Program-made: the position numbers and the translations under genes
Part shown: piece after piece, positions 7,100-51,225 of the stretch
Position numbering within the stretch: the first letter of the stretch is position 1
Layout: every line of letters starts with the position of its first letter
Notes under the pieces: generated by a model
What the model was told of the DNA's origin: nothing
Seen by the model: the letters and a program-made list of their open reading frames with translations, nothing else
The model's database searches: none
Assembly (NCBI RefSeq): GCF_007753265.1
Contig: NZ_CP036349.1
Location: forward strand, 4,497,363 to 4,561,362
DNA length: 64,000 nucleotides
Reading direction: 5' to 3'
From: Botrimarina mediterranea
Lineage (GTDB): Bacteria; Planctomycetota; Planctomycetia; Pirellulales; Lacipirellulaceae

Positions 7100-7191
7100 G
7101 GCGGCGGGTCTCCATTGGGACAGAAAACTGAGGGGCTTTGATTAGTGGGATACGTTGTGAGTCCGGATTTGTCTATGGAAACTGAAGCTTA

Positions 7192-7298
7192 GTAGGGTCC
7201 GCTGTGAGGACCGTGCTTGGTGGTTTGGCGCCAGATCTGGCACGGTGGGCGAGGAGGCGCCGCGCTCGCTCAACTACGGTCCGCACAGCGGACCCTAC
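7192..7298. repeat. inverted repeat with 15-bp perfect arms
   Basis: The left arm GTAGGGTCCGCTGTG and right arm CACAGCGGACCCTAC are perfect complements separated by 77 bp. It lies upstream of cydA. The rest of the 331-bp gap 7100-7430 holds a fragment resembling family A (TTTGCGTCTCTGCACGAGAC, about 7312-7331) and no gene that I can support. Confidence 0.75.
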
Positions 7299-29788: not shown

Positions 29789-29995
29789 AAGAGCCCCGGA
29801 GGGGCGGCAGCGTGCAGCCAGGGGCGCGAGCCCCTGGTAGACGACGCCTCAAACAGCAAAGCCCCGGAGGGGCGACAGCAACGTTGATCATCACGTTGCT
29901 GTCGCCCCTCCGGGGCTTTCTAGTTCCCTTTTTCCGATGACCAGGGGCTTGCGCCCCTGGCTACGCGCTTTCGCCCCTCCGGGGCTTTCTTTGCT
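29789..29995. repeat. inverted repeat cluster, family D (GCCCCGGAGGGGC)
   Basis: Four GCCCCGGAGGGGC-type units occur in about 200 bp, two in each orientation, with CCAGGGGCGCGAGCCCCTGG and CCAGGGGCTTGCGCCCCTGG hairpins between them. The central palindrome is AGCAACGTTGATCATCACGT and continues to GCTGTCGCCCCTCCGGGGC. This explains most of the gap 29763-30214; the remainder (29996-30214) holds no gene I can support. Confidence 0.85.
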
Positions 29996-39206: not shown

Positions 39207-39280
39207 GGGCGATTAGCTCAGTTGGTTAGAGCGCTGCCTTCACACGGCAGAGGTCACAGATTCGAGTTCTGTATCGCCCA
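39207..39280 (+). tRNA. tRNA-Val (anticodon CAC)
   Basis: A 74-nt cloverleaf: acceptor GGGCGAT pairs with ATCGCCC, the D-arm is TAGCTCAGTTGGTTAGAGC, and the anticodon stem CTGCC/GGCAG encloses TTCACAC with anticodon CAC. The T-arm follows (CACAGATTCGAGTTCTGT), with discriminator A and no encoded CCA. A tyrosine integrase gene begins 124 bp downstream, so the 3' end of this tRNA is a likely attachment site. Confidence 0.95.
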
Positions 39281-39318
39281 CTAGCTGTAACTTCTGCCGA
39301 GTCTTGAGTTTCTGACAC

Positions 39319-39335
39319 CTGCCGACGGTCGGCAG
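39319..39335. promoter_or_regulatory. palindrome upstream of the integrase gene (1)
   Basis: CTGCCGAC and GTCGGCAG are perfect 8-bp arms around one base. It lies between tRNA-Val and the integrase start and could be an operator or arm-type recombinase site. Confidence 0.5.
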
Positions 39336-39354
39336 TGCGGCGTTTCCCGGAGAG

Positions 39355-39378
39355 CCAAAACGGTACCTACCGTTTTGG
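39355..39378. promoter_or_regulatory. palindrome upstream of the integrase gene (2)
   Basis: CCAAAACGGTA and TACCGTTTTGG are perfect 11-bp arms around CC, ending 25 bp before the integrase ATG. No T-tract follows, so an operator for a dimeric repressor or excision factor fits better than a terminator. Confidence 0.55.
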
Positions 39379-39403
39379 GGCTTCAATCCTTGGGAGACCC
39401 GCG

Positions 39404-40585
39404 ATGCCACGTCTAGTAAGTAAGCTGCCGACCTATCGTCGCCACAAGGCGAGCGGCCAAGCTGTCGTCACTCTCTGCGGTGTCGATCACTACCTTGGGC
39501 CCTACGGTTCGAAGCCGAGCCGCGTTCTGTACGACCGGCTGGTCGCGGAGTGGCTGGCAAGCGGCCGCTCGCGGCCAAGCAACGCCGACGCGTCAGCTTT
39601 GACAATTGTCGAACTCGCTGCGCGGTACTGGGAGTTCGCCGTCGGCTACTACCAGAAGGACGGTCGCAGCACCGGTGTCACCCCGGGAATCAAGGCGACG
39701 CTGCGATACCTCAACGACTGGTACGGCCGTGAGCCTGCGGACCAGTTCGGGCCCCTGCGGCTGAAGGCGCTCCGTGACCGGATGATCGCCGACGGGCACA
39801 GCCGCAACTACATCAACGACCACGTGGGCCGCATCAAGCGGATGTTCAAGTGGGCGGTCAGCGAGGAACTGGTCACGGAATCGACCTACCACGCGCTCGC
39901 TGTCGTGGAAGGTTTGAAGCGAGGACGGACAACGGCGCGTGAGACAGCACGTGTCCTCCCGATTGACGACGCGATTGTTCAGCAGACGTTGACATTTCTT
40001 CCCGAAACGGTCGCCGACATGGTCAGACTGCAACGCTTAACAGGCATGCGGCCAGCGGAGGTCTGTCTGCTCCGGCCCTGTGACCTGGACCGATCGAGAC
40101 CGGTTTGGATCTACCGACCCGAAAGCCACAAGACAGAGCATCACGGCCGGGATCGGTGGGTTTTCGTGGGCCCGCAGGGTCAAGAGCTGCTCGACCGTTA
40201 CCTCGATCGTGACCCCGACAGCCGCTGTTTCCAGCCTCGAGACAGCGAGGCACGGCGCCGGCTGGCGGCACATGCGGCTCGGGTAACCCCACCAAATCAA
40301 GGGGACGCGCCGGGCGCCAACCGGGCGCCTCGGCCCAAACGGTCGCCGGGAAGCACTTACCATGTCGCAAGTTACCGGCGGGCAATCCATCGCGCTTGCG
40401 ATAAGGCCGGCGTTGCCCGTTGGAGTCCGAACCGCCTCCGGCACGCCGCCGCGACAGAAGTCCGCGCGAAATTCGGCCTCGAGGCCGCCCAGGTCGTTCT
40501 CGGCCATGCTGGGGCCGATGTCACCCAGATTTACGCCGAGCGGGACCTCGCCAAGGGGCTCGAGGTAGCCGCAAAAATTGGCTAG
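39404..40585 (+). CDS. tyrosine recombinase / integrase
   Basis: A 393-aa site-specific recombinase with an N-terminal SAM-like core-binding domain (about residues 65-165) and a C-terminal catalytic domain. Catalytic residues seen: Arg in LTGMRPAEV (about 216), Lys in SHKTEH (243), the RLRHAAAT block (344-351) whose usual first histidine is Asn, His in VLGHAG (368), and nucleophilic Tyr in TQIYAE (377). ATG 39404 has GGAG at a spacing of 8 and is preferred over the in-frame start at 39335. It sits next to tRNA-Val and most likely integrates this element. Confidence 0.92.
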   Translation: MPRLVSKLPTYRRHKASGQAVVTLCGVDHYLGPYGSKPSRVLYDRLVAEWLASGRSRPSNADASALTIVELAARYWEFAVGYYQKDGRSTGVTPGIKATLRYLNDWYGREPADQFGPLRLKALRDRMIADGHSRNYINDHVGRIKRMFKWAVSEELVTESTYHALAVVEGLKRGRTTARETARVLPIDDAIVQQTLTFLPETVADMVRLQRLTGMRPAEVCLLRPCDLDRSRPVWIYRPESHKTEHHGRDRWVFVGPQGQELLDRYLDRDPDSRCFQPRDSEARRRLAAHAARVTPPNQGDAPGANRAPRPKRSPGSTYHVASYRRAIHRACDKAGVARWSPNRLRHAAATEVRAKFGLEAAQVVLGHAGADVTQIYAERDLAKGLEVAAKIG

Positions 40586-40683
40586 CCCGGGCGCCTTCTT
40601 TTTTGCGACTGCGTTTCTGTCTAATCGTTCGCAGTCCCTCGCACTGGGGACGAGTGAATAGCACGAAGACGCAGGAGGCAGGG

Positions 40684-41808
40684 ATGGTTATTGAGAGTTG
40701 CACGGCGATGATCGTCGCGGAAAAGCTGGATGAGCTGCAACAATGCCTGCTCGGGCTGTCCGAGAACACCGCGTGGATTGAGCGGATCGCGGAGCGCTAC
40801 GCATTTCTCTACGACGAGGAGAATCGCATTTGCGGGCTGGTCGGGTGGTGGCGGTCCAAAGGCGCCTCGATCCCCGAAGTCCATATCCATGATTACTTGC
40901 TCCGCCGTCGGGAGTTGCTCGCGACGGTCAACCTAGCGGAAGGCGTCGATGACGACTCGGTCGCCGGCGAGGAATACGCGCGCACCGAATTCGACGACGC
41001 CTTGCCCTATGGTTGCCTCCCGCGCGCTTTTCCGTTCTCCGCCGACGCAGCAGAGCTCACCGATGATGTTATGCCGTCCCGCGGTGCGATCGCGGCTGCC
41101 AAGGCCAACGAATGCCTGTCAGCCGTACTGGAGGATCTGGCACGGCTCCCCTCGTTGGTGGTGGCGGCGGACCAGTCGCTCGACGGCCTCTCGAAATCCA
41201 CTGTGTTGCAACTCGATGGCTTGAACGGGCGCCCATGGATTCCGCAAGTGCGGCGTCAGTTGCTCGACCATCTGCCGGTATTCCTCACGCTTCGGGGCGT
41301 CAAGAAGTCGGATCCGCCCACTACTGCGATCGATTTTTTGACCGAGCTTTGGCCGGGAGAAACGCAGAAAGCTTGGGCCTCCGCTGCCTATCACGCAGAG
41401 CATTTTGCCGATGACGCCCGTGCGTGCCGCAGCGCGGAGGCTGGGCCATCGGGCCAGCCGCCGGCGATGGATTCTCATGCACGGGACTGTGTCGAGATTG
41501 CGGATGGGCCGATCACGCCAGACTGTTGGCGACACAACGGGCAATTGCTCTACGACCTTAAAGGAGTGCCCTTCCAGCTCGCCTCGACCTTGTACGAAGC
41601 CATGCCTTACGGAGTCCGGTTTGAACAACTGGCGGAGCCGGTCCTTGGGGATCATGCCGCCCCAGTTGATTCCAAGGACGTCCAGAATTGGGCGACACCC
41701 GTTCGCAACTTCTTCAAGAAGCATCGCATCCCGCTTACGGTCACAGTCCGCCAGCCATACGTATCAATCAGGCCCGCTCAGCAAGCCGGCGTCACTGATG
41801 GCGAATAA
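40684..41808 (+). CDS. hypothetical protein of the integrated element
   Basis: A 374-aa protein without signal peptide or membrane helix. I do not recognise it. The N-terminal 60 residues are helical (LDELQQCLLGLSENTAWIER). The C-terminal 110 residues (CWRHNGQLLYDLKGVPFQLA, then NWATPVRNFFKKHRIPLTVT) look like a small helix-turn-helix-type module. ATG 40684 has GGAGG five bases upstream. Base composition is lower in GC than the core genes. It lies between the integrase and the DUF1580 gene, so a role in element regulation or maintenance is plausible but unproven. Confidence 0.65.
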   Translation: MVIESCTAMIVAEKLDELQQCLLGLSENTAWIERIAERYAFLYDEENRICGLVGWWRSKGASIPEVHIHDYLLRRRELLATVNLAEGVDDDSVAGEEYARTEFDDALPYGCLPRAFPFSADAAELTDDVMPSRGAIAAAKANECLSAVLEDLARLPSLVVAADQSLDGLSKSTVLQLDGLNGRPWIPQVRRQLLDHLPVFLTLRGVKKSDPPTTAIDFLTELWPGETQKAWASAAYHAEHFADDARACRSAEAGPSGQPPAMDSHARDCVEIADGPITPDCWRHNGQLLYDLKGVPFQLASTLYEAMPYGVRFEQLAEPVLGDHAAPVDSKDVQNWATPVRNFFKKHRIPLTVTVRQPYVSIRPAQQAGVTDGE

Positions 41809-41919
41809 GTGCCAGATAAGTCTGTCCTAAGACTTCCCTAAGAGTTTCCCACGACACTGCGTCGCCAAACTTCCTCGCACTACTGAACGCATCCAACCGT
41901 TCATCCCTGCGAGGAACCA

Positions 41920-42207
41920 ATGCTGAAGGATAACTCCGGTTACCTGACTCTCCCCGCCGCGTCGGCCACGCTCCCCGGCCGGCCTCACGTCGCGACCCTC
42001 CACCGCTGGCGCACCCGTGGTGTGCGTGGGGTCCGCCTACGGACCTGCCTGATCGGCGGCCGGCGGTACACGACGCGCGAGTGGCTCCGCGAGTTCATCG
42101 AGGCGACCACGGCCGAGGATGCTGGCGCGCCCCGCGCCTCTGATAGCCCCCGCCGCGAATCGGAAATCGCCGCCGCCGAGCGCTGCCTAAAGGCCGCCGG
42201 CATCTAG
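41920..42207 (+). CDS. DUF1580-family helix-turn-helix protein
   Basis: A 95-aa protein matching DUF1580, a family I know mainly from planctomycetes. Seen: SGYLTLPAASATLPGRPHVA, then TLHRWRTRGVRGVRLRTCLI and GGRRYTTREWLREF. This is an excisionase-like winged HTH in which the WRTRGVRGV segment is the recognition region. Such genes often accompany integrases. Here it lies 1.3 kb downstream of one, so an excision or regulatory factor (Xis-like) is a good guess. About 110 bp before it are without a gene. Confidence 0.8.
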   Translation: MLKDNSGYLTLPAASATLPGRPHVATLHRWRTRGVRGVRLRTCLIGGRRYTTREWLREFIEATTAEDAGAPRASDSPRRESEIAAAERCLKAAGI

Positions 42208-42245
42208 TCCCCCCAGCCAAGACCTCGCCGCCGGCGGTGCGCCCT

Positions 42246-42287
42246 AAAAAAAAGGCCCCGCCGAGCGTTGGCGCGCTTCGGCGAGGC
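42246..42287 (-). terminator. minus-strand intrinsic terminator-like hairpin
   Basis: On the minus strand a stem TCGGCG-type/CGCCGA with inner GCG/CGC pairing is followed by a run of eight T. It overlaps the possible TTG start of the next plus-strand gene. No minus-strand gene reads into it, so an antisense transcript is one explanation. Confidence 0.4.
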
Positions 42288-43383
42288 GGAGAATCCATTG
42301 CTCCAGAATTGTAACACACTCGACAAGAAATCGAATCGCCGTTCGGACCCGGGAGATATTGGTGGCAAACAACTAAAGGGTAAGCGGTTCAAGCTGCTCG
42401 AGGCGATCGATCCGCAGAGCCTCGACACACCAATCGGACGTCGCGCTTGGGCAACCGTGGTCAACCTGCTAAAGGCCATCGCGATTTTCTCGAAGGATGG
42501 GCCCTGCGAGGCTTACGTCAGCACTATCGCCCAGTGGATGAGCGAGAGGGTTGGCGTCGATCGGTCGACGGTCCACCGGGCATCGAAGCTGGCCCAGGAA
42601 CTCGGATTGCTCATCATCGAGCCGCGGTACTCGCACGGCGGTCGCACGGCGAATCGGTGGATCGTCTGCTGGGATGTCGTCGAAGAGTTGGCGGAGGCGT
42701 CTGGCCAAGGCAGTCAGTCGCAGGATGCAACAGTGGGGGTCGCACATTGCGACCCACCTGATCGCAATCTGCAGCAAAGTGAGTCGCACGATGCATCAGG
42801 GTGGCTCTCAGTATGCGACTCACCTCGTCGCAGTTTGCAACAAGGTGAGTCGCACAATGCGACAGCTAATAAAGGATTAACCTCTTCATTACCCCTTGAA
42901 GAATCCCCTCCTCTTTCCCCCGCAAACGGCTGGGAGGAGGAGGTCGAAGTTCTTTTGAAACTTGGGGTACGTCAGGCACAGCCTGCCGTGCAGGCCGCGA
43001 TCGCTGCCGACTGCACGATCGACGACTGGCGCCCTCATCGCGAGTTCTGGCACGAGCACTCCGATCTTTGGGACAGTCCCGAAGGCGTGTTATACAGCCG
43101 GCTCTTCTCGCTGCGTCCTGGTCAGGCGTTCGACAAAGGGTGGCCCGAACCCAACGACTCGAAGTTGAAAGCGCGGAAAGTCCGGATCGAGGGTCTCAAC
43201 TACGACCGCAAGAAGCAGGCGAAAAAGCAATGGGAGAGCTACGATCGGGCCAAACATCTTGAGATTCTGCAGGAGGCGGGATTCTCTCCGACCAAGGCCG
43301 AGCAGCTTTACGACTGGAACCCTGCCGCAGCCGAACGCTACGCGATCGCCCACATGGCGCGGCCGCTGAAGCTGCCCTGGTAG
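42268..43383 (+). CDS. winged-helix protein, replication/regulation-like
   Basis: A 371-aa protein from a TTG start; no ATG is available before the conserved part, so the start is uncertain. Residues about 60-140 form a winged helix ([20 protein letters not shown], then [11 protein letters not shown]), as in plasmid and phage replication initiators and in crenarchaeal or GntR-like regulators. Residues 155-200 are encoded by two 50-bp direct repeats and read [16 protein letters not shown] and [16 protein letters not shown]. The C-terminal half is charged and helical ([15 protein letters not shown]). I infer a replication or partition role for the element. No nicking or helicase motif is seen. 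Confidence 0.65.
42745..42860. repeat. two direct repeats, each a dyad, inside the winged-helix gene
   Basis: Two 50-bp units (42745-42794 and 42811-42860) are about 80% identical with a period of 66 bp. The second contains perfect 12-bp inverted arms, TGCGACTCACCT (42814-42825) and AGGTGAGTCGCA (42843-42854). The first has the same arms with two mismatches. A half-site GTCGCACATTGCGAC precedes unit 1. The layout resembles iterons or operators placed inside an initiator gene. Confidence 0.7.
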
Positions 43384-43472: not shown

Positions 43473-45196
43473 ATGGCGAAGAAGAAGACGACACGCAAGG
43501 CGAAGGGCGACAACGCTGCGGCCGCCGCTCCTGCCACGCCCACCGACCTCGATTACGCCGACAAGCTCTGGAAAGCGGCCGATACGCTCCGCGGGCAGGT
43601 CGATGCGGCCGAGTACAAGCACGTCGTGCTCGGACTCTTGTTCCTCAAGTACATTAGCGACGCCTTCGCCGCGCGGCGTGACGAGCTGGCCGCCGAGCTC
43701 ACCGCCGACGGCATCCCCGCGGCGCAGCACGCCGGGCTCCTCGAGAGCCGCGACGAGTACGCGGCCGAGAATGTCTTCTGGGTCCCCAAGGCGGCCCGTT
43801 GGGAAGAGCTGCAAGCGCAAGCCACCAGCCCCAAGATCGCCACGCTGATCGACGACGCCGTGCTCGCCGTCGAAGCCGACAACCCCTCGCTGAAAAACAA
43901 GCTGCCGCGCGACTACGCTCGCCGCGGCATCGAGCCGATCAAGCTCAAGTCGCTCGTGGACCTCGTCGCCGACATCGGCTTCAAGGGGGGCCGCGACAAG
44001 GCCCGCGACACGCTCGGCCGCGTCTACGAGTATTTCCTCGGCAAGTTCGCCCAGGCCGAAGGCAAGCTCGGCGGCGAGTTCTATACGCCCCGCTGTGTGG
44101 TGCGCCTGCTCGTCGAGATGCTCGAGCCCTATGAGGGCCGCGTCTACGACCCGTGCTGTGGTTCGGGCGGCATGTTCGTCCAGTCCGAGCGGTTCGTCGA
44201 GGCCCACGGCGGCCGCCGCACCGACATCTCGATCTTCGGCCAAGAGTCGAACCCGACGACGTGGCGCCTCGCCCATATGAACGTCGCGCTGCGTGGCATC
44301 GAGGCGAACCTCGGCGAGAAGCCGGCCGACACGTTCCTCGCCAACCTGCACCCCGACCTGCGGTGCGACTACCTGCTCGCCAACCCGCCGTTCAACGTCA
44401 GCGACTGGTCGGGCCAGCTCTTGCGCGACGATGTCCGCTGGAAGTACGGCGCCCCGCCCGTGGGCAACGCCAACTACGCGTGGATCCAGCACTTCGTCCA
44501 CCACCTGGCGGTCCCTAACGGGAAAGGCGGGGGCGTCGCCGGGTTCGTGATGGCGAACGGCTCGCTATCGAGCAACTCGGGGGGCGAGGGGGACATCCGC
44601 CGCAGCATCGTCGAGGCCGACCTCGTCGATTGCATCGTCGCCCTTCCCGCACAGCTCTTCTACACGACCGGCATCCCGGTCTGCCTCTGGTTCCTGACAC
44701 GCGACAAGACGGGCCGCAACCTGCGCAACGGCTGCCCGAACCGGCCAAGGGCCGTAAGGGCGAGACGCTGTTCATCGACGCCCGCAAGCTCGGCGCGATG
44801 CAGACGCGGACGCTGCGCGTCTTATCGGGCGCGGAGGACGCCGAGCTGTTCGAGGGATCGCACGACCCGGGGCCCGACTCCGATATTGGCCGCATCGCCT
44901 ACGCATTCCGCCAGTGGCGCGGCGAGCCGGCGCCGAAGTGGTGGGATGAGAAGCAACACGGCGAGTGGAAGTACGCCGACCGTCCCGGCTTCTGCAAGGC
45001 GGCGACGATCGCCGACATCGCCAAGCACGCCCACGTCCTCACGCCGGGCCGTTACGTCGGCGCCGAGGATGTCGAGGACGACGGCGAGCCGTTCGCGGAG
45101 AAGTACCCGCGGCTGGTGGCGGAGTTGGAGACGCACTTTGCGGAGGGGGAGCGGCTAACGGTGGTGATCCGCGAGCGACTGAGGTCGTTGGTATGA
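43473..45196 (+). pseudogene. hsdM: type I restriction-modification DNA methyltransferase (HsdM), one-base frameshift
   Basis: An N6-adenine methyltransferase of type I R-M, about 574 aa once the frame is restored. The helical N-domain is at 25-190. The SAM site [10 protein letters not shown] is near residue 226 and the catalytic NPPF ([12 protein letters not shown]) near 304. At 44730-44732 the frame breaks. Upstream it reads [11 protein letters not shown]; the expected continuation [20 protein letters not shown] is in the +1-shifted frame starting at 44732 and runs to the TGA at 45194-45196. One missing G (AACGG-CTG for AACGGGCTG) explains it. If translated without the shift, the product ends at 45158 with a nonsense Arg/Ser-rich tail. 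It may be a real mutation, a phase variant or an assembly error. The end overlaps the hsdS start by ATGA. Confidence 0.88.
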
Positions 45197-46491
45197 ATAG
45201 AGATTGGCGTCAAGTCACGCTGGAAGAAGTCTCCGATCAAATAACGGTAGGCCACGTTGGTTCGATGGCCTCGCGCTATGTCGAAATCGGCATTCCATTT
45301 CTTAGGTCGCAGAACGTAAAGAGACTTCAGCTTGACTTATCGGAGACCAAGTTCATTCCTGAATCCTTCCACGCAGAATTGCAGAAGTCTCGGCTGCGTC
45401 CTGGAGACGTAGTAATCGTGCGAACGGGAGAACCGGGCTCCTGCGCGGTCATCCCGGATACTTTGCCGGACTCAAATTGTTCAGACCTCGTTATCGTGCG
45501 GCCGGGCTCCGAGTTGGATGCTCGCTTTCTTTCCTACTATGTGAACGCAGCGGCACAACACCACGTTGCGTCGCATCTAGTAGGGGCAGTCCAGCAACAC
45601 TTCAATGTTGGTGCAGCCCGGACGCTTCCTCTCAACCTCCCTCCTTTCTTTGAGCAACTGGCGATAGTTGGCGTGCTCGGCGCGCTCGACGACAAGATCG
45701 AGCAGAACCGGCGGACGGCGGAGGGATTGGAGAAGTTGGCGCGGGCGATCTTCCGGGCGTGGTTCGTGGACTTCGAGCCGGTCCACGCCAAGGCGGCCGG
45801 CGCCACGTCCTTCCCCGGCATGCCGCCCGCCGTCTTCGACTCGCTGCCGACCCGGCTGGTGGACTCGGAGCTGGGGCCCATCCCGGAGGGATGGGGAGTG
45901 GAGCGTCTCTCGACGATTTGCGAGGTCAATCCGAAACGAGCGATACGCAAGGGGGATGTCGCACCCTATCTCGACATGAAGGGCATGCCGACTTCTGGAC
46001 ACGCGCCTTCGGATTGGATCGATCGGCCCTTCGGTTCAGGAATGCGGTTCATCAACGGCGATACGCTGGTGGCGCGGATCACGCCTTGCCTAGAGAATGG
46101 CAAGACCGCGTACGTCGATTTCCTCGAACCGGATCAAGTAGCGTGGGGTTCTACCGAGTACATTGTCCTGCGGCCTCTCGATCCAAACCCTCCGATCTTT
46201 GCTTACTGCCTCGCGCGTACGGATGAGTTCCGCGACTTCGCGGTTCAAAATATGAGCGGAACAAGTGGACGGCAACGCGTACCGGCGGAAGCAATGGACC
46301 ACTACCGGCTAGCGAACCCATCGAGAAGTTGCGCCGAGGCTTTCGGCAAGATCGTCGAGCCACTCTTCGCGCGCGTGCGAGCGGGAATCGACGAGTCGCG
46401 AAAGCTTGCGGAGCTGCGGGACTACCTGCTGCCCAAACTGCTGAGCGGCGAGGTGCGGGTGAATCCCACGGCGGACGAGGAGGCAGCGTAA
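45193..46491 (+). CDS. hsdS: type I restriction-modification specificity subunit
   Basis: A 432-aa HsdS with two target recognition domains. The first half starts WRQVTLEEVSDQITVGHVGS and the second starts LGPIPEGWGVERLSTICEVN. The conserved helical spacers are EQLAIVGVLGALDDKIEQNR with LARAIFRAWFVDFEPV after it, and ESRKLAELRDYLLPKLLSGE at the end. It sets the bipartite DNA target for the HsdM and HsdR subunits. ATG 45193 overlaps the hsdM stop by 4 bp, showing translational coupling. The target-domain DNA is lower in GC than hsdM and hsdR, as expected for recombining specificity modules. The stop overlaps the next ATG by one base. Confidence 0.93.
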   Translation: MNRDWRQVTLEEVSDQITVGHVGSMASRYVEIGIPFLRSQNVKRLQLDLSETKFIPESFHAELQKSRLRPGDVVIVRTGEPGSCAVIPDTLPDSNCSDLVIVRPGSELDARFLSYYVNAAAQHHVASHLVGAVQQHFNVGAARTLPLNLPPFFEQLAIVGVLGALDDKIEQNRRTAEGLEKLARAIFRAWFVDFEPVHAKAAGATSFPGMPPAVFDSLPTRLVDSELGPIPEGWGVERLSTICEVNPKRAIRKGDVAPYLDMKGMPTSGHAPSDWIDRPFGSGMRFINGDTLVARITPCLENGKTAYVDFLEPDQVAWGSTEYIVLRPLDPNPPIFAYCLARTDEFRDFAVQNMSGTSGRQRVPAEAMDHYRLANPSRSCAEAFGKIVEPLFARVRAGIDESRKLAELRDYLLPKLLSGEVRVNPTADEEAA

Positions 46492-46991
46492 TGGACCCAA
46501 ATAAGCAAAAAGAAGAGTTCAGCCGGGGATACGTCCAATCGTTAGCGGCTGCGGCTGGTTTCTCGGTCTCGGAACCGAGCGTCGATGATGATAGTATCGA
46601 CCTCACCTTCCATAGGACCGGCGGTAAAGGGACGATACGGTCTCCAAGGTTCGATGCGCAGCTGAAGTGTTCTGCGCAGGCGTTGCCGACGACTGATTTC
46701 GGCTTCTCTCTGAAGCTCAAAAATTACGACGACCTTCGGGTACCCTCAGGCCAATTGGCCGTTCATCGAATACTGGTAGTGGTACTGGTTCCGGACGACC
46801 CTGCCGACTGGGCGAGATACGCCACCGCCCACCTCCCGCTCAAGCACGGGGCGTACTGGCTAAATCTCGCCGGAATGCCGACAAGTACGAATAAGACGGC
46901 GCAATCCGTTACGATTCCCTTCGGTCAATCCTTTACGGTGGATTCGCTATTGGCCATCATGGATGTCGTGGGAAATGGAGGTACTCCGTAA
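46491..46991 (+). CDS. DUF4365-domain protein within the type I R-M operon
   Basis: A 166-aa protein matching the DUF4365 pattern: EEFSRGYVQSLAAAAGFSVS at the N-terminus, DDSIDLTFHR near residue 37, FDAQLKCSAQ near 57 and a C-terminal hydrophobic strand set (HRILVVVLVPDD). The E...D...QxK spacing is that of a PD-(D/E)XK nuclease-like core with Gln in place of Glu. DUF4365 domains are known from several defence contexts. It overlaps hsdS by one base (TAATG) and the next gene by one base, so it is translated with the R-M operon. I infer an accessory nuclease or regulator. The composition is lower in GC than hsdM or hsdR. Confidence 0.75.
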   Translation: MDPNKQKEEFSRGYVQSLAAAAGFSVSEPSVDDDSIDLTFHRTGGKGTIRSPRFDAQLKCSAQALPTTDFGFSLKLKNYDDLRVPSGQLAVHRILVVVLVPDDPADWARYATAHLPLKHGAYWLNLAGMPTSTNKTAQSVTIPFGQSFTVDSLLAIMDVVGNGGTP

Positions 46992-48130
46992 TGCTCGACA
47001 CCTTCTCAAAAGCCGCAATCCGAACTGTTCGGCCCCTCGACGTTGCGCAATACCTCCGGTTCTCTGGCTGGGAGGAGACGCCCCGCCCTGCCAGCTCCGA
47101 TTCACAGTGGCGAGCCTGGCAACGAACTATTGGCGACGACGAATTCGAAGCGATAGTTCCCCGCGCGACGGATCGTGCGGATTATGCGCTCCGAGTCGCG
47201 GAGTTAATCGAGACAATCGCGGTAAGCGAAGGCCGCGAGCGCGAACAAGTCTTTTTTGACTTGCTACATGTCGGCTCGGACGTAATTCGAGTACGGATTT
47301 CTGATCCAGACTTTGAGGACGGCTCCCTACCTATAGAAGAGCATGCAATCGTCGCGCAGAGGACCAGCGATATCGTGCTCGCCGCCGCATGCGCGGCAGT
47401 TAGTCCTAAGCCCGTTTGGCGTTCGCGCCGGCCGGCTGAGGCTGTTGAGCAAGTCCGAGGTATCAGAATTGGGCAAAGCGAAATCGGAAGTTACATCGTC
47501 AAAGTAATCAACAGAATTACTCCAAGCCTAGAGCCAGACAGTCAAGAGACCGAAGAGCCGTTTGATCGTCGTGTCACCACGACGTTGGCCTCCGCTCTCG
47601 TTGCGTTGGACAATGCGTCTGAGCGGGCAGCCGTCTACTCAGAGATGGACGCTTTCAACCGCGCAGTGCAGTCCGGAGTAAGTGCGAATCTTTGCGATGC
47701 CGTCTCTGGCCTTTGGGGGGGGGACGATTCGCAGCGGCAGCTCGAGTTCATGTTCAGCTGGTCGCCAACTCGTCCTGTTGGCGCGACACCAATCCGTCGC
47801 GTTGGTTTCGGTTCCGATCGCGCGAGAGTGATCCGTGAAGCAGGAAGACTATTGCGTGAGAGAGCGCCGGAAGAAGATTTCCAGGTAGGCGGGTATGTCG
47901 TGAAGCTAGACAGAGCACCTGATAACGAGTCCGGATCGGTCGTTGTCGCCTGCGACATAGACGGCGCGACGCGTCGTATAAGTATGGTCCTGTCGGGGAA
48001 TAACTATAGGGCGGCAATCGATGCTCACCGCGACACCAATCTGTTCCGCGCGACCGGTCTTCTCTCCAAAGCTGGACGGACCTATTCGCTTGAACTGCCT
48101 CACAGCATCACGGTAGAGAGCGAGCAGTAA
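46991..48130 (+). CDS. unknown protein between hsdS and hsdR
   Basis: A 379-aa soluble protein with no signal peptide or membrane helix. I recognise no family. The N-terminal part (LDTFSKAAIRTVRPLDVAQY) looks helical. The C-terminal third is beta-rich (EDFQVGGYVVKLDRAPDNES, then SVVVACDIDGATRRISMVLS). The gene begins at the TAATG junction with the DUF4365 gene and precedes hsdR by 29 bp. A run of nine G at 47715-47723 lies in the reading frame (LWGGDD) and is prone to slippage. The coupling and gene order suggest that it works with the DUF4365 protein as a cargo pair inside the R-M locus (inference). Confidence 0.7.
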   Translation: MLDTFSKAAIRTVRPLDVAQYLRFSGWEETPRPASSDSQWRAWQRTIGDDEFEAIVPRATDRADYALRVAELIETIAVSEGREREQVFFDLLHVGSDVIRVRISDPDFEDGSLPIEEHAIVAQRTSDIVLAAACAAVSPKPVWRSRRPAEAVEQVRGIRIGQSEIGSYIVKVINRITPSLEPDSQETEEPFDRRVTTTLASALVALDNASERAAVYSEMDAFNRAVQSGVSANLCDAVSGLWGGDDSQRQLEFMFSWSPTRPVGATPIRRVGFGSDRARVIREAGRLLRERAPEEDFQVGGYVVKLDRAPDNESGSVVVACDIDGATRRISMVLSGNNYRAAIDAHRDTNLFRATGLLSKAGRTYSLELPHSITVESEQ

Positions 48131-48159
48131 ACTCCCAACCTGGTGCATAGGTCGCCGCG

Positions 48160-51100
48160 TTGCACGAATTCGCCGTCGAAGACGATACGCTCGAACTCCT
48201 CGCCGGCCTCGGCTATTCAGCCGCTAGGGGCGTCGATCTATCCGAAGCGGGCGACCGGACGCAGCAAACGGACTGGCTCCTGCGACCGCGGCTGGTGGCG
48301 GCGATCGGGCGGCTCAACCCGCAGCTCTCCGCCGACGATGTCGAGGGCGTCGTGCGGGTAGTCGCCGCGCCACCGCACCCGACGCTCGTCGAGAACAACC
48401 GCTGGCTGCACGGTCTGCTGACGGGGGGCGTCGATGTCGAGTACGCCGACCCGACGACCGGCGAACGCCGTGGCGACAAAGCCCAGCTAATCGATTTCGA
48501 CAACCCAGCGGCTAACGACTGGCTTGTCGTCCGCCAACTGACGATCGCCGGCGCCGGCGGCAAATCCGTCCGCCCCGACCTCGTGGTCTATCTCAACGGC
48601 CTGCCGATCGGCGTCGTCGAACTCAAGGACCCGACCGACACGGTAGCGACGCTCGACCGGGCGATCGACGATCGCCTCCGCAAGTACCAGCGGCTGGTCC
48701 CCGACCTCTACGCCGCGAACCTGCTGTGCGTCGCGTCGGATGGGCTACTGACGCGGGTCGGCTCGTTGACGGCGAATGCCTCGCGTTACATGCCGTGGCG
48801 GCCCGAGGCGGGGGGCGAGCCGTCTCTCGACGCGATGTGCCGCGAGCTGCTCGCGCCCGACCGGCTGCTCGACTACCTGACAAGTTGCGTCACGTTCGAG
48901 GAGGACGAACGCGGCGACATCGTCAAGAAGATCGCCGGCTATCACCAGTTCCGCGCCGTGCGGAAGGCCCGCGAGCGCGTGCTCACCGCGCAGCGGACGC
49001 CCGGCGCGCCGGTGGACGACAACCCACTAGGCCAAGCCGACGGCCGCGGCGGCGTCGTCTGGCATACGCAGGGCTCGGGCAAGTCGCTCTCGATGCTGAT
49101 GCTCGCTGGGGCGCTGGTGCGTCAGCCGGAGATGGCGAACCCGACCGTCGTCATCGTGACGGACCGCAACGACCTCGACGACCAGCTCTTCAGCACGTTC
49201 GCGATGGGGCGTGACCTGTTGCGGCAGGCGCCCATCCAAGCCGAGAGCCGCGAGCACCTGGCGGAGCTGCTGGACCGCGCCAGCGGCGGCGTGATCTTTA
49301 CGACGGTCCACAAGTTCACCGAACGGAAGGACCCCATCAGCGAGCGGCCGAATATCGTCGTCATGGCGGACGAGGCCCACCGCAGCCAGTACGGATTCGT
49401 CGAGGGGGGCGCCCGCTGGATGCGCGACGCGCTGCCGAACGCGACGTTCGTCGGCTTCACCGGCACGCCGCTCGAGCGCGACGACAAGAACACGATCCAC
49501 GTCTTCGGCGAGTACGCCGACGTTTACGACATCCGCCAAGCGGTGCTCGACGGCGCCACCAAGCCGCTCTATTACGAATCGCGGCTGGTGAAGCTCAAGA
49601 TTGACGACGCCGAGGCGGACGCCGCCGAGAAGCTCGTCGATGACCTCGCCGAAGCTGACGCCAGCGGCGCGGAGCCCGCGGGGACGGTGCGGGTGCGTCT
49701 CGAGCAGTTGGTCGGCGCGCCCGACCGGATCAAGGACGTGGCGAAGTTCGTCGTCGAGCACTGGGAGGCCCGCCGCTCCGCGATGGAAGGCAAGGCGATG
49801 CTCGTGACGATGAGCCGTATGATCGCCGCGCGACTCTACGAGGCGATCCGCGAGCTGCGGCCCGAGTGGCACAGCGACGACGACAAGCTCGGCGCGATGA
49901 AGGTGATCGTCACCGGCATGGCCAGCGACGAGGCGCCCCTCGCGCAGCACGGCCGCACCAAGGCGGCGCGGAAGGCGCTGGCGGCGCGGTTCAAGGACCC
50001 GGCCGACGAGTTCCGGTTGGCGATCGTCTGCGATATGTGGCTGACGGGTTTTGACTGCCCGCCGGCGCATACGATGTACCTTGACAAGACGCTCGCCGGC
50101 CACAACCTGATGCAAGCGATCGCGCGAGTGAACCGCGTCTTCGGCGACAAGCCGGGCGGCCTGATCGTCGATATGCTCGGGCTCGTGGACCAGCTCGCCG
50201 ACGCGCTGGAGACCTACACGCGCGAAGGGGGCACCGGCGACGCCGTCCAGAAGGTTCAAGACCGCGCCGTCCCGGTGATGAAGGACGCCTTCGAGACGTT
50301 GCAAAAGTTCCTGCATGGTAGCCGTTACGAGGAGGCCCTCAACCCGGGTTCGCAGTTCCTGCCGATCGCTCTGCGGGTGATCGACCATATCTTCGGCGCC
50401 GACGACGGCTGGAAGCGATACCAGCGCGAGCTAAAGAAGCTCTCGACCGCCTATGCGCTGGTCGTTCCGCGCGAGGAGGCGGAGGCGATCGTCGATCACC
50501 TGCGGTTCTTCCAGCAAGTCGCGGCGATGATCCGCAAGCGACTCGGCGATGACCGCGGCGGCGACCGCTCGAAGCAGCGCGACATCGACGCGGCCGTACG
50601 GCAGGTGGTGGGGGGCGCGGTAGACGCCGACGAGGTGATCGACCTCTTCGCCGTCGCGGGGCTCGAGGACGCCCGGCTCGACATCCTCTCGGACGACTTC
50701 CTGAAGCGCATCTCGGCGCTCGAGCAAAAGAACCTCGCCCTCGAGACGCTCAAGAAACTCCTGGCCGACGAGATCCGCACGACCGAGCGCACGAACTTGG
50801 TCCGCAGCCGCCAGTTCCGCGAGGCTCTTGAGGACGCGATCACCAAGTACACCAACCGGGCGATCGATACGGCGGAGATGATCGCCAAGCTGATCGACCT
50901 GGCGGTGACGATTCGCGACGCCAAGGCCGAGGGGCAGGACCTGGGGCTCTCGTCCGAGGAGGTCGCCTTCTACGACGCCCTCGCCGAGAACGGCTCGGCC
51001 CGCGAGGCAATGAAGTCGGACGACCTTCGATTTATGGCGCGCGAGTTAACGGAGATGGTCAAGAAAATGCCCAAGCTCGACTGGACCGAACGGGAGGCCG

Positions 51101-51225
51101 TCCGGGCGACGCTCCGCCGCAACGTAAGGCGGCTGCTGGCCAAGTACGGCTATCCCCCCGACCTCTCCGAGGACGCGACGCAGCTTGTGCTGAGGCAGGC
51201 GGAGCTATCGACGGAGGGGACGTAG
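48160..51225 (+). CDS. hsdR: type I restriction endonuclease subunit R
   Basis: A 1021-aa motor-nuclease subunit. The N-terminal PD-(D/E)XK nuclease shows Asp near residue 140 (VRPDLVVYLNG) and ELK near 154 (GVVELKD). The SF2 translocase has Walker A HTQGSGKS at 302-309, VTDRNDLDDQL near 334, DEAH at 404-407 (VMADEAHRSQYG), FVGFTGTPLE near 431, and the motif VI region QAIARVNRVFGDKPGG near 650. The C-terminal helical part contacts the methylase. The frame starts with TTG at 48160; an in-frame TAG 12 bp upstream excludes a longer start. Together with HsdM and HsdS it would cut unmodified invading DNA. Confidence 0.93.
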   Translation: MHEFAVEDDTLELLAGLGYSAARGVDLSEAGDRTQQTDWLLRPRLVAAIGRLNPQLSADDVEGVVRVVAAPPHPTLVENNRWLHGLLTGGVDVEYADPTTGERRGDKAQLIDFDNPAANDWLVVRQLTIAGAGGKSVRPDLVVYLNGLPIGVVELKDPTDTVATLDRAIDDRLRKYQRLVPDLYAANLLCVASDGLLTRVGSLTANASRYMPWRPEAGGEPSLDAMCRELLAPDRLLDYLTSCVTFEEDERGDIVKKIAGYHQFRAVRKARERVLTAQRTPGAPVDDNPLGQADGRGGVVWHTQGSGKSLSMLMLAGALVRQPEMANPTVVIVTDRNDLDDQLFSTFAMGRDLLRQAPIQAESREHLAELLDRASGGVIFTTVHKFTERKDPISERPNIVVMADEAHRSQYGFVEGGARWMRDALPNATFVGFTGTPLERDDKNTIHVFGEYADVYDIRQAVLDGATKPLYYESRLVKLKIDDAEADAAEKLVDDLAEADASGAEPAGTVRVRLEQLVGAPDRIKDVAKFVVEHWEARRSAMEGKAMLVTMSRMIAARLYEAIRELRPEWHSDDDKLGAMKVIVTGMASDEAPLAQHGRTKAARKALAARFKDPADEFRLAIVCDMWLTGFDCPPAHTMYLDKTLAGHNLMQAIARVNRVFGDKPGGLIVDMLGLVDQLADALETYTREGGTGDAVQKVQDRAVPVMKDAFETLQKFLHGSRYEEALNPGSQFLPIALRVIDHIFGADDGWKRYQRELKKLSTAYALVVPREEAEAIVDHLRFFQQVAAMIRKRLGDDRGGDRSKQRDIDAAVRQVVGGAVDADEVIDLFAVAGLEDARLDILSDDFLKRISALEQKNLALETLKKLLADEIRTTERTNLVRSRQFREALEDAITKYTNRAIDTAEMIAKLIDLAVTIRDAKAEGQDLGLSSEEVAFYDALAENGSAREAMKSDDLRFMARELTEMVKKMPKLDWTEREAVRATLRRNVRRLLAKYGYPPDLSEDATQLVLRQAELSTEGT

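What the first reader, a model, noticed from the sequence alone, without database searches (positions are those of the whole stretch)
46491..48130. Two-gene cargo (DUF4365 plus unknown 379-aa protein) coupled inside a type I R-M operon
Seen: hsdS, the DUF4365 gene and the 379-aa gene overlap by single TAATG junctions and precede hsdR by 29 bp. Both are lower in GC than hsdM/hsdR. Known: type I operons normally hold only hsdR, M, S and occasionally recognised extras. Inference: the pair is a transferable defence or immunity-control module, with DUF4365 as a PD-(D/E)XK-like effector.
Basis: partly seen in the sequence, partly recalled or inferred. Interest (0 to 1): 0.75.

Follow-up and report, generated by a model that had tools for sequence, protein, structure and literature searches.

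The report
Nuclease pair in a restriction cargo slot
Two overlapping genes for a predicted DNA-cutting enzyme and its likely nucleic-acid-sensing partner, already listed in a database as an untested anti-virus candidate, sit in a swappable cargo slot inside a bacterial restriction system; relatives of that system keep quite different defence genes in the same slot.

Summary
In detail: hsdS, a DUF4365 gene (166 aa) and a 379-aa gene join by two TAATG overlaps, 29 bp before hsdR. PADLOC names the pair: PDC-M02A (5e-55) and PDC-M02B (2.6e-124), an uncharacterised two-gene defence candidate. The DUF4365 protein is predicted to fold like the DREN nuclease of SPARDA (Z 13), with D37/Q57/K59 matching the DREN catalytic residues. 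The partner has a C-terminal OB fold (SSB/PriB-like) and a 290-aa domain without a PDB match. A lies immediately upstream of B at nearly all of 109 loci and the two co-diverge (r = 0.77). The pair is autonomous and mobile: 18 of 84 scorable copies lie inside type I R-M loci, requiring 11-14 label changes on the tree. Three Botrimarina alleles, two in this genome, keep hsdM and hsdR 90-96% identical while the hsdS-hsdR slot holds PDC-M02, a divergent PDC-M02, or an unrelated 560-aa gene. Planctomycete relatives hold PARIS, GmrSD-like, PDC-S19, PDC-M03A or unknown genes there. Most likely mechanism, not shown here: B senses infection, probably through nucleic acid, and releases nuclease A. The kind is known (DarTG2, TgvAB, RloF); the allele trio and slot occupancy are new details.

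The parts
43473..45196 (+). hsdM (N6 MTase), 1-nt frameshift near 44733; N-terminal frame 43473-45158, C-terminal frame ends at 45196
   Evidence: Pfam N6_Mtase 1.9e-83 and HsdM_N; frame switch; same frameshift in the genome's second copy, intact in B. colliarenosi
45193..46491 (+). hsdS specificity subunit, 432 aa; central conserved region 45652-45903 and distal conserved end 46389-46489 are shared with sister alleles, the TRDs are not
   Evidence: Pfam Methylase_S and PADLOC Specificity_I 2.8e-113; blastn blocks
46491..46991 (+). PDC-M02A: DUF4365 / DREN-type PD-(D/E)XK nuclease, 166 aa; catalytic D37, Q57, K59
   Evidence: Pfam DUF4365 2.4e-21; PADLOC PDC-M02A 5e-55; AF2 pLDDT 92.6; fold match to SPARDA DREN Z 13
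46991..48130 (+). PDC-M02B: 379 aa; N-terminal domain (about 1-290) without a PDB fold match, C-terminal OB fold 292-379
   Evidence: PADLOC PDC-M02B 2.6e-124; AF2 pLDDT 94.7; OB-fold matches
46492..48144 (.). cargo slot: the sequence shared by sister alleles ends at the hsdS stop and resumes at 48145, 15 bp before hsdR
   Evidence: blastn and alignment against the second copy in the same genome and B. colliarenosi
48160..51225 (+). hsdR, 1021 aa, TTG start conserved in three alleles
   Evidence: TIGR00348 5e-148; HSDR_N, SWI2_SNF2, T1RH-like_C; alignment
39207..39281 (+). tRNA-Val(CAC), likely attachment site of the element that carries the locus
   Evidence: ARAGORN, Rfam
39335..40585 (+). 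tyrosine recombinase/integrase next to the tRNA
   Evidence: Pfam Phage_integrase 4.2e-12
41920..43383 (+). DUF1580 gene (41920-42207) and a 371-aa gene (42268-43383), part of the same element
   Evidence: Pfam DUF1580 3e-14; 85-90% DNA identity to the genome's second copy

Best explanation
The pair is a member of PDC-M02, an autonomous two-gene anti-phage candidate carried as exchangeable cargo in the hsdS-hsdR slot of a type I R-M system. Gene A makes a DREN-type (DUF4365) PD-(D/E)XK nuclease with D37/Q57/K59. Gene B makes its partner, which holds A inactive or unassembled and senses infection, probably binding nucleic acid (for instance single-stranded phage DNA) through its C-terminal OB fold. 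On sensing, A is released or assembled and degrades DNA, giving phage clearance or abortive infection. Shown here: family membership, gene coupling and co-divergence, predicted folds, catalytic residues, repeated embedding, allele swap at fixed borders. Inferred: nuclease activity, the A-B complex, the trigger, phage defence. The pair does not need the R-M genes; the slot gives it co-transcription and a ride when homologous recombination in the conserved hsdS and hsdR ends exchanges the contents (inferred from the sharp borders).
For: PADLOC PDC-M02A and PDC-M02B. A: fold of SPARDA DREN, Foldseek 1.6e-06 and VIA Z 13.0, rmsd 3.1 over 132 residues; Q57 and K59 in 83 of 84 (one gap), D37 in 83 of 84, matching NbaSPARDA D41/Q60/K62, whose alanine mutants lose or impair collateral nuclease activity (PMC12205087), and TmuRE Q62/K64 (PMC10810196). 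B: OB fold 292-379 like SSB, PriB and RPA. Unit: junctions mostly -4, -1 or -11 nt, Mantel r 0.77 against at most 0.19 in 2000 shuffles. Type I genes are the commonest neighbours; the R-M label needs 14 changes, at least 11 by well-supported branches. Allele swap in the same genome and genus. The slot's other occupants include PARIS- and GmrSD-type proteins. Plasmids and temperate phages carry the pair.
Against: No activity was tested. Most scorable copies lie outside type I loci (66 of 84), with mixed neighbours, few of them obvious defence genes. OB folds bind many ligands, and the OB match is middling (Z about 8). The N-terminal domain of B, about three quarters of the protein, gave no PDB match. 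A few B copies in type I loci lack A altogether, so B may do something without it. No A-B complex was predicted.
Confidence: 0.6

Rival explanations
1. A toxin-antitoxin type abortive module: A is a constitutively toxic nuclease and B its inhibitor, with B lost, degraded or displaced when phage takes over the cell; no specific ligand is sensed by the OB fold.
For: Two overlapping genes with tight co-divergence; frequent on plasmids and in prophages, where addiction modules are common; DarTG2, a TA pair, occupies the same slot in E. coli (PMC12255303).
Against: B (379 aa, two conserved domains) is large for an antitoxin; nearly invariant residues spread over the N-terminal domain suggest more than inhibition; B occurs without A in several type I loci.
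Confidence: 0.22
2. A guard of the R-M system: the pair is triggered when phage inhibits type I restriction (Ocr/ArdA-like proteins), as PARIS reacts to Ocr, and therefore sits inside R-M operons.
For: Repeated embedding in type I loci; PARIS-type AriA/AriB genes occupy the same slot in a relative.
Against: Most scorable copies are not in type I loci; the other occupants of the slot are mechanistically unrelated, which fits general cargo.
Confidence: 0.1
3. An auxiliary part of the type I enzyme, for instance an extra nuclease recruited to HsdR or HsdS complexes.
For: Coupled in one operon with hsdS; the slot contents differ together with the hsdS TRDs in the Botrimarina alleles.
Against: The pair occurs on plasmids, phages and chromosomes without type I genes; the same backbone runs with a wholly different cargo gene in the same genome.
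Confidence: 0.05

Closest known systems
PDC-M02 (PADLOC-DB two-gene phage defence candidate; PDCs come from the guilt-by-embedding study of Payne et al. 2024, a preprint cited in PMC12255303 and PMC12988326)
   Same: Both proteins match the family models over nearly full length, same gene order and coupling
   Different: Nothing essential; this is another member, here with a defined slot and sister alleles
SPARDA (short prokaryotic Argonaute with DREN/DUF4365-APAZ; PMC12205087, PMC10810196)
   Same: Effector nuclease: same fold (Z 13), same D-Q-K catalytic signature and nearly the same spacing; two adjacent genes
   Different: A is DREN alone, without APAZ; B is an OB-fold protein with an unrelated N-terminal domain, not an Argonaute; no guide RNA component seen
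TgvAB inside the V. cholerae VPI-2 type I R-M cluster (PMC11411939)
   Same: Two-gene restriction/defence pair embedded in a type I operon; the same paper notes RloF between hsdR and hsdS and GmrSD homologues frequent in type I loci
   Different: GmrSD-type, modification-dependent enzyme; unrelated proteins
RptR-RMS-DarTG2 island of EPEC (PMC12255303)
   Same: Two-gene defence cargo exactly between hsdS and hsdR; the authors suggest a recombination hotspot
   Different: Cargo is the DarT/DarG toxin-antitoxin pair; a dedicated repressor RptR controls that operon, not looked for here
PARIS (AriA/AriB)
   Same: AriA- and AriB-like genes occupy the same slot of a relative in the same family (L158)
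   Different: ABC ATPase plus DUF4435 protein, a different mechanism

Membership tests
PDC-M02 | A protein matches PDC-M02A model | tested here: met
   5e-55, residues 1-164 of 166
PDC-M02 | B protein matches PDC-M02B model | tested here: met
   2.6e-124, residues 7-378 of 379
PDC-M02 | A and B adjacent in one operon | tested here: met
   TAATG overlap; same across loci
PDC-M02 | Anti-phage activity | not testable with these tools
   No assay; no paper naming PDC-M02 found in the library
DUF4365 / DREN nuclease (PD-(D/E)XK) | Pfam DUF4365 domain over the gathering score | tested here: met
   76.7 bits against cut-off 24.3
DUF4365 / DREN nuclease (PD-(D/E)XK) | D...Q-x-K catalytic residues conserved | tested here: met
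   D37, Q57, K59 nearly invariant in 84 sequences; spacing as NbaSPARDA D41/Q60/K62 within one residue
DUF4365 / DREN nuclease (PD-(D/E)XK) | DREN fold | tested here: met
   VIA Z 13.0 to 9qcc and 9vx6, on a predicted model
DUF4365 / DREN nuclease (PD-(D/E)XK) | Nuclease activity | not testable with these tools
   Needs biochemistry
SPARDA | APAZ domain fused to DREN | tested here: not met
   A is 166 aa and DUF4365 covers 8-159
SPARDA | Short Argonaute partner | tested here: not met
   No Pfam hit in B; its recognisable domain is an OB fold
Type I R-M system | hsdM, hsdS, hsdR in one operon | tested here: met
   Pfam, NCBIfam and PADLOC
Type I R-M system | Intact hsdM reading frame | tested here: not met
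   1-nt frameshift near 44733 in both copies of this genome; a sequencing error cannot be excluded
Toxin-antitoxin system | A toxic alone and neutralised by B | not testable with these tools
   Needs expression tests

The most novel reading that the evidence does not exclude
In this type I R-M subfamily the hsdS-hsdR interval is a standing cargo bay rather than an occasional insertion site: nearly every planctomycete member fills it, with unrelated known, candidate and unknown defence genes, and recombination in the conserved ends of hsdS and hsdR swaps DNA specificity and accessory effector while hsdM and hsdR stay nearly identical. PDC-M02 would be one occupant, an Argonaute-free DREN nuclease gated by an OB-fold sensor. 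The many occupants without any database match would then be a ready list of undiscovered defence systems.
Probability: 0.55. Interest if true: 0.65.

Novelty: new member of a known kind. Interest (0 to 1): 0.5.

Why it matters
It gives an untested database candidate a concrete, testable mechanism (DREN nuclease with named catalytic residues plus an OB-fold partner), and it gives a natural experiment: the same type I backbone in one genome and genus with three different slot contents. If the slot is a general cargo bay, reading it across genomes is a cheap way to find new anti-phage systems; nine of the slot genes scanned here matched nothing in PADLOC (eight of them at a strict cut-off).

Tried and rejected
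Single-protein peptide searches with P0002 in genome and viral contigs found nothing; an alignment of close relatives was needed. PDB sequence search with both profiles gave nothing credible. Foldseek for B gave no PDB hit under 0.001; absence of a match for its N-terminal domain does not show a new fold, as that part was not searched alone. In predicted viral structures B resembles a Leptospira phage LE1 protein (3.4e-23) and a DUF6575 phage protein (2e-8); the DUF6575 lead was not followed. No downstream copy of the tRNA-Val 3' end was found, so the right border of the element is unknown. Considered and rejected: SPARDA membership (no APAZ, no Argonaute) and a part of the R-M enzyme (most scorable copies are away from R-M). 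PDC-M02 is not in the papers library by name, and the founding preprint is not held.

Full report
Check. The gene order and junctions are as described. hsdS stops at 46491 and shares one base with the ATG of the DUF4365 gene; that gene stops at 46991 and shares one base with the 379-aa gene, which stops at 48130; hsdR starts at a TTG at 48160. GC3 is 0.89-0.91 for hsdR and hsdM, 0.68 for hsdS, 0.62 and 0.58 for the pair. One feature was missed: hsdM carries a 1-nt frameshift near 44733, present also in the second copy of the system in this genome and absent in B. colliarenosi.

Identity. PADLOC-DB has models for both: PDC-M02A and PDC-M02B. Pfam knows only DUF4365; NCBIfam has neither; PHROGs has both as unknown. 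PDCs are putative candidates proposed through guilt by embedding, most of them still without experimental validation (PMC12988326).

One unit. B relatives were collected from plasmids, phages, viral contigs, the window's phylum and 80 genome contigs, giving 109 B loci. A was found immediately upstream at nearly all of them. Some of the rest are cut by a contig end or carry a broken A; a smaller set truly lacks A. The junction is -4 nt in 63, -1 in 14 and -11 in 9. A and B distances correlate at r = 0.77 over 84 loci, against at most 0.19 in 2000 shuffles.

Folds. A is predicted at pLDDT 92.6; its best PDB matches are the DREN domains of SPARDA complexes, VIA Z 13.0 with rmsd 3.1 over 132 residues, then archaeal Hjc resolvases. 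D37, Q57 and K59 are nearly invariant. In NbaSPARDA D41, Q60 and K62 are catalytic, and their alanine mutants lose or impair the collateral nuclease activity (PMC12205087). In TmuRE the Q62/K64 pair was mutated to give an inactive enzyme (PMC10810196). B is predicted at pLDDT 94.7. Its residues 292-379 form an OB fold like SSB, PriB and RPA (Z about 8); the first 290 residues gave no PDB match in the whole-protein search.

Context. Of 106 B proteins in a tree, 18 lie in type I loci, 66 do not, and 22 could not be scored (three of the 18 rest on hsdR alone or on distant hsdS, namely L074, L075 and L115). Type I genes are the most common neighbours. The label needs 14 changes, at least 11 by well-supported branches, so copies have entered or left type I loci many times. 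The immediate neighbours of the other copies are mixed, with some defence genes. The sample was drawn by a peptide pattern and by similarity to the window, so these fractions are not population estimates. In several type I loci B stands without A; in three of them a DUF1828/1829 (PDC-M24B) gene lies between hsdS and hsdR or beside B.

Cargo slot. B. colliarenosi, the nearest relative, has HsdM 95.7% and HsdR 93.4% identical but HsdS 44%, A 48% and B 55%. Its contig has the same length as that of a genome the search tool labels 'same genus', so the window is probably a Botrimarina species (inference). A second copy of the system in the window's own genome (HsdR 96%) has the same conserved hsdS end and hsdR start, but a single 560-aa gene of no known family between them. 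Conserved DNA stops at the hsdS stop codon and resumes 15 bp before hsdR.

Occupancy. Among the 25 nearest HsdR relatives in the order with at least 1 kb upstream in view (the window's own locus is one of them), only one has hsdS abutting hsdR (my count). In 24 loci fetched at greater length with both hsdS and hsdR in view, the interval is empty in two (my count from crude ORF calls; many were fetched because hsdS was not close, so this second figure is biased). Occupants with matches are PARIS AriA/AriB, GmrSD-DUF4268, PDC-S19, PDC-M03A, PDC-M04A and PDC-S11. In other phyla the slot occupants include AbiEii, AbiJ-like, PDC-S01 and Mrr-like proteins.

Known precedents. DarTG2 lies between hsdS and hsdR in EPEC, where the authors suggest a recombination hotspot (PMC12255303). 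TgvAB is a two-gene pair inside a V. cholerae type I cluster, and RloF lies between hsdR and hsdS in C. jejuni (PMC11411939). The kind of arrangement is therefore known; what is added here is the allele trio, the sharp borders, the occupancy, and the mechanistic reading of PDC-M02.

Mechanism. Most likely B keeps A inactive and senses infection through its OB fold, releasing a DREN nuclease that degrades DNA. This follows from folds, residues and gene coupling; no step of activity has been shown.

Noticed in passing
window 44690-44830; L150 about 7107-7220: hsdM is frameshifted by one base at the same place in both copies of the system in this genome, while B. colliarenosi is intact; either a real shared lesion (perhaps spread by gene conversion) or a systematic sequencing error. 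If real, both type I enzymes are probably dead.
   Followed up: partly
window 39207-43383; L150 1998-5793: tRNA-Val, integrase, DUF1580 gene and a 371-aa gene precede hsdM; 85-90% similar DNA precedes the second copy, so the system seems to travel on a family of integrative elements. Right border not found.
   Followed up: partly
L150:9183-10862: 560-aa slot occupant with no Pfam or PADLOC match, in the second copy of the R-M system of this genome: a candidate defence gene.
   Followed up: partly
L171, L172, L174, L175, L176, L180, L181, L182 (hsdS-hsdR intervals): Eight further slot genes of 384-715 aa without PADLOC match at 1e-15.
   Followed up: no
L084, L089, L101, L105, L074: B copies in type I loci without A; in L084, L089 and L105 a DUF1828/1829 (PDC-M24B) gene lies near B, which could be a partner swap.
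   Followed up: partly
L169 1932-3610; L018 398-2160: Leptospira phage LE1 (gp38-gp37) and a Mycobacterium abscessus prophage (genes 1-2) carry the pair; the prophage copy is at the left end, a usual place for cargo.
   Followed up: partly
G000:C1:2499037-2499402 (-): A second DUF4365 domain in this genome, inside a 715-codon open frame, with one in-frame TAG in the match.
   Followed up: no
window 29792-29837 (-) and 29941-29986 (+): Two Acido-Lenti-1 RNA matches in opposite orientation about 100 bp apart.
   Followed up: no
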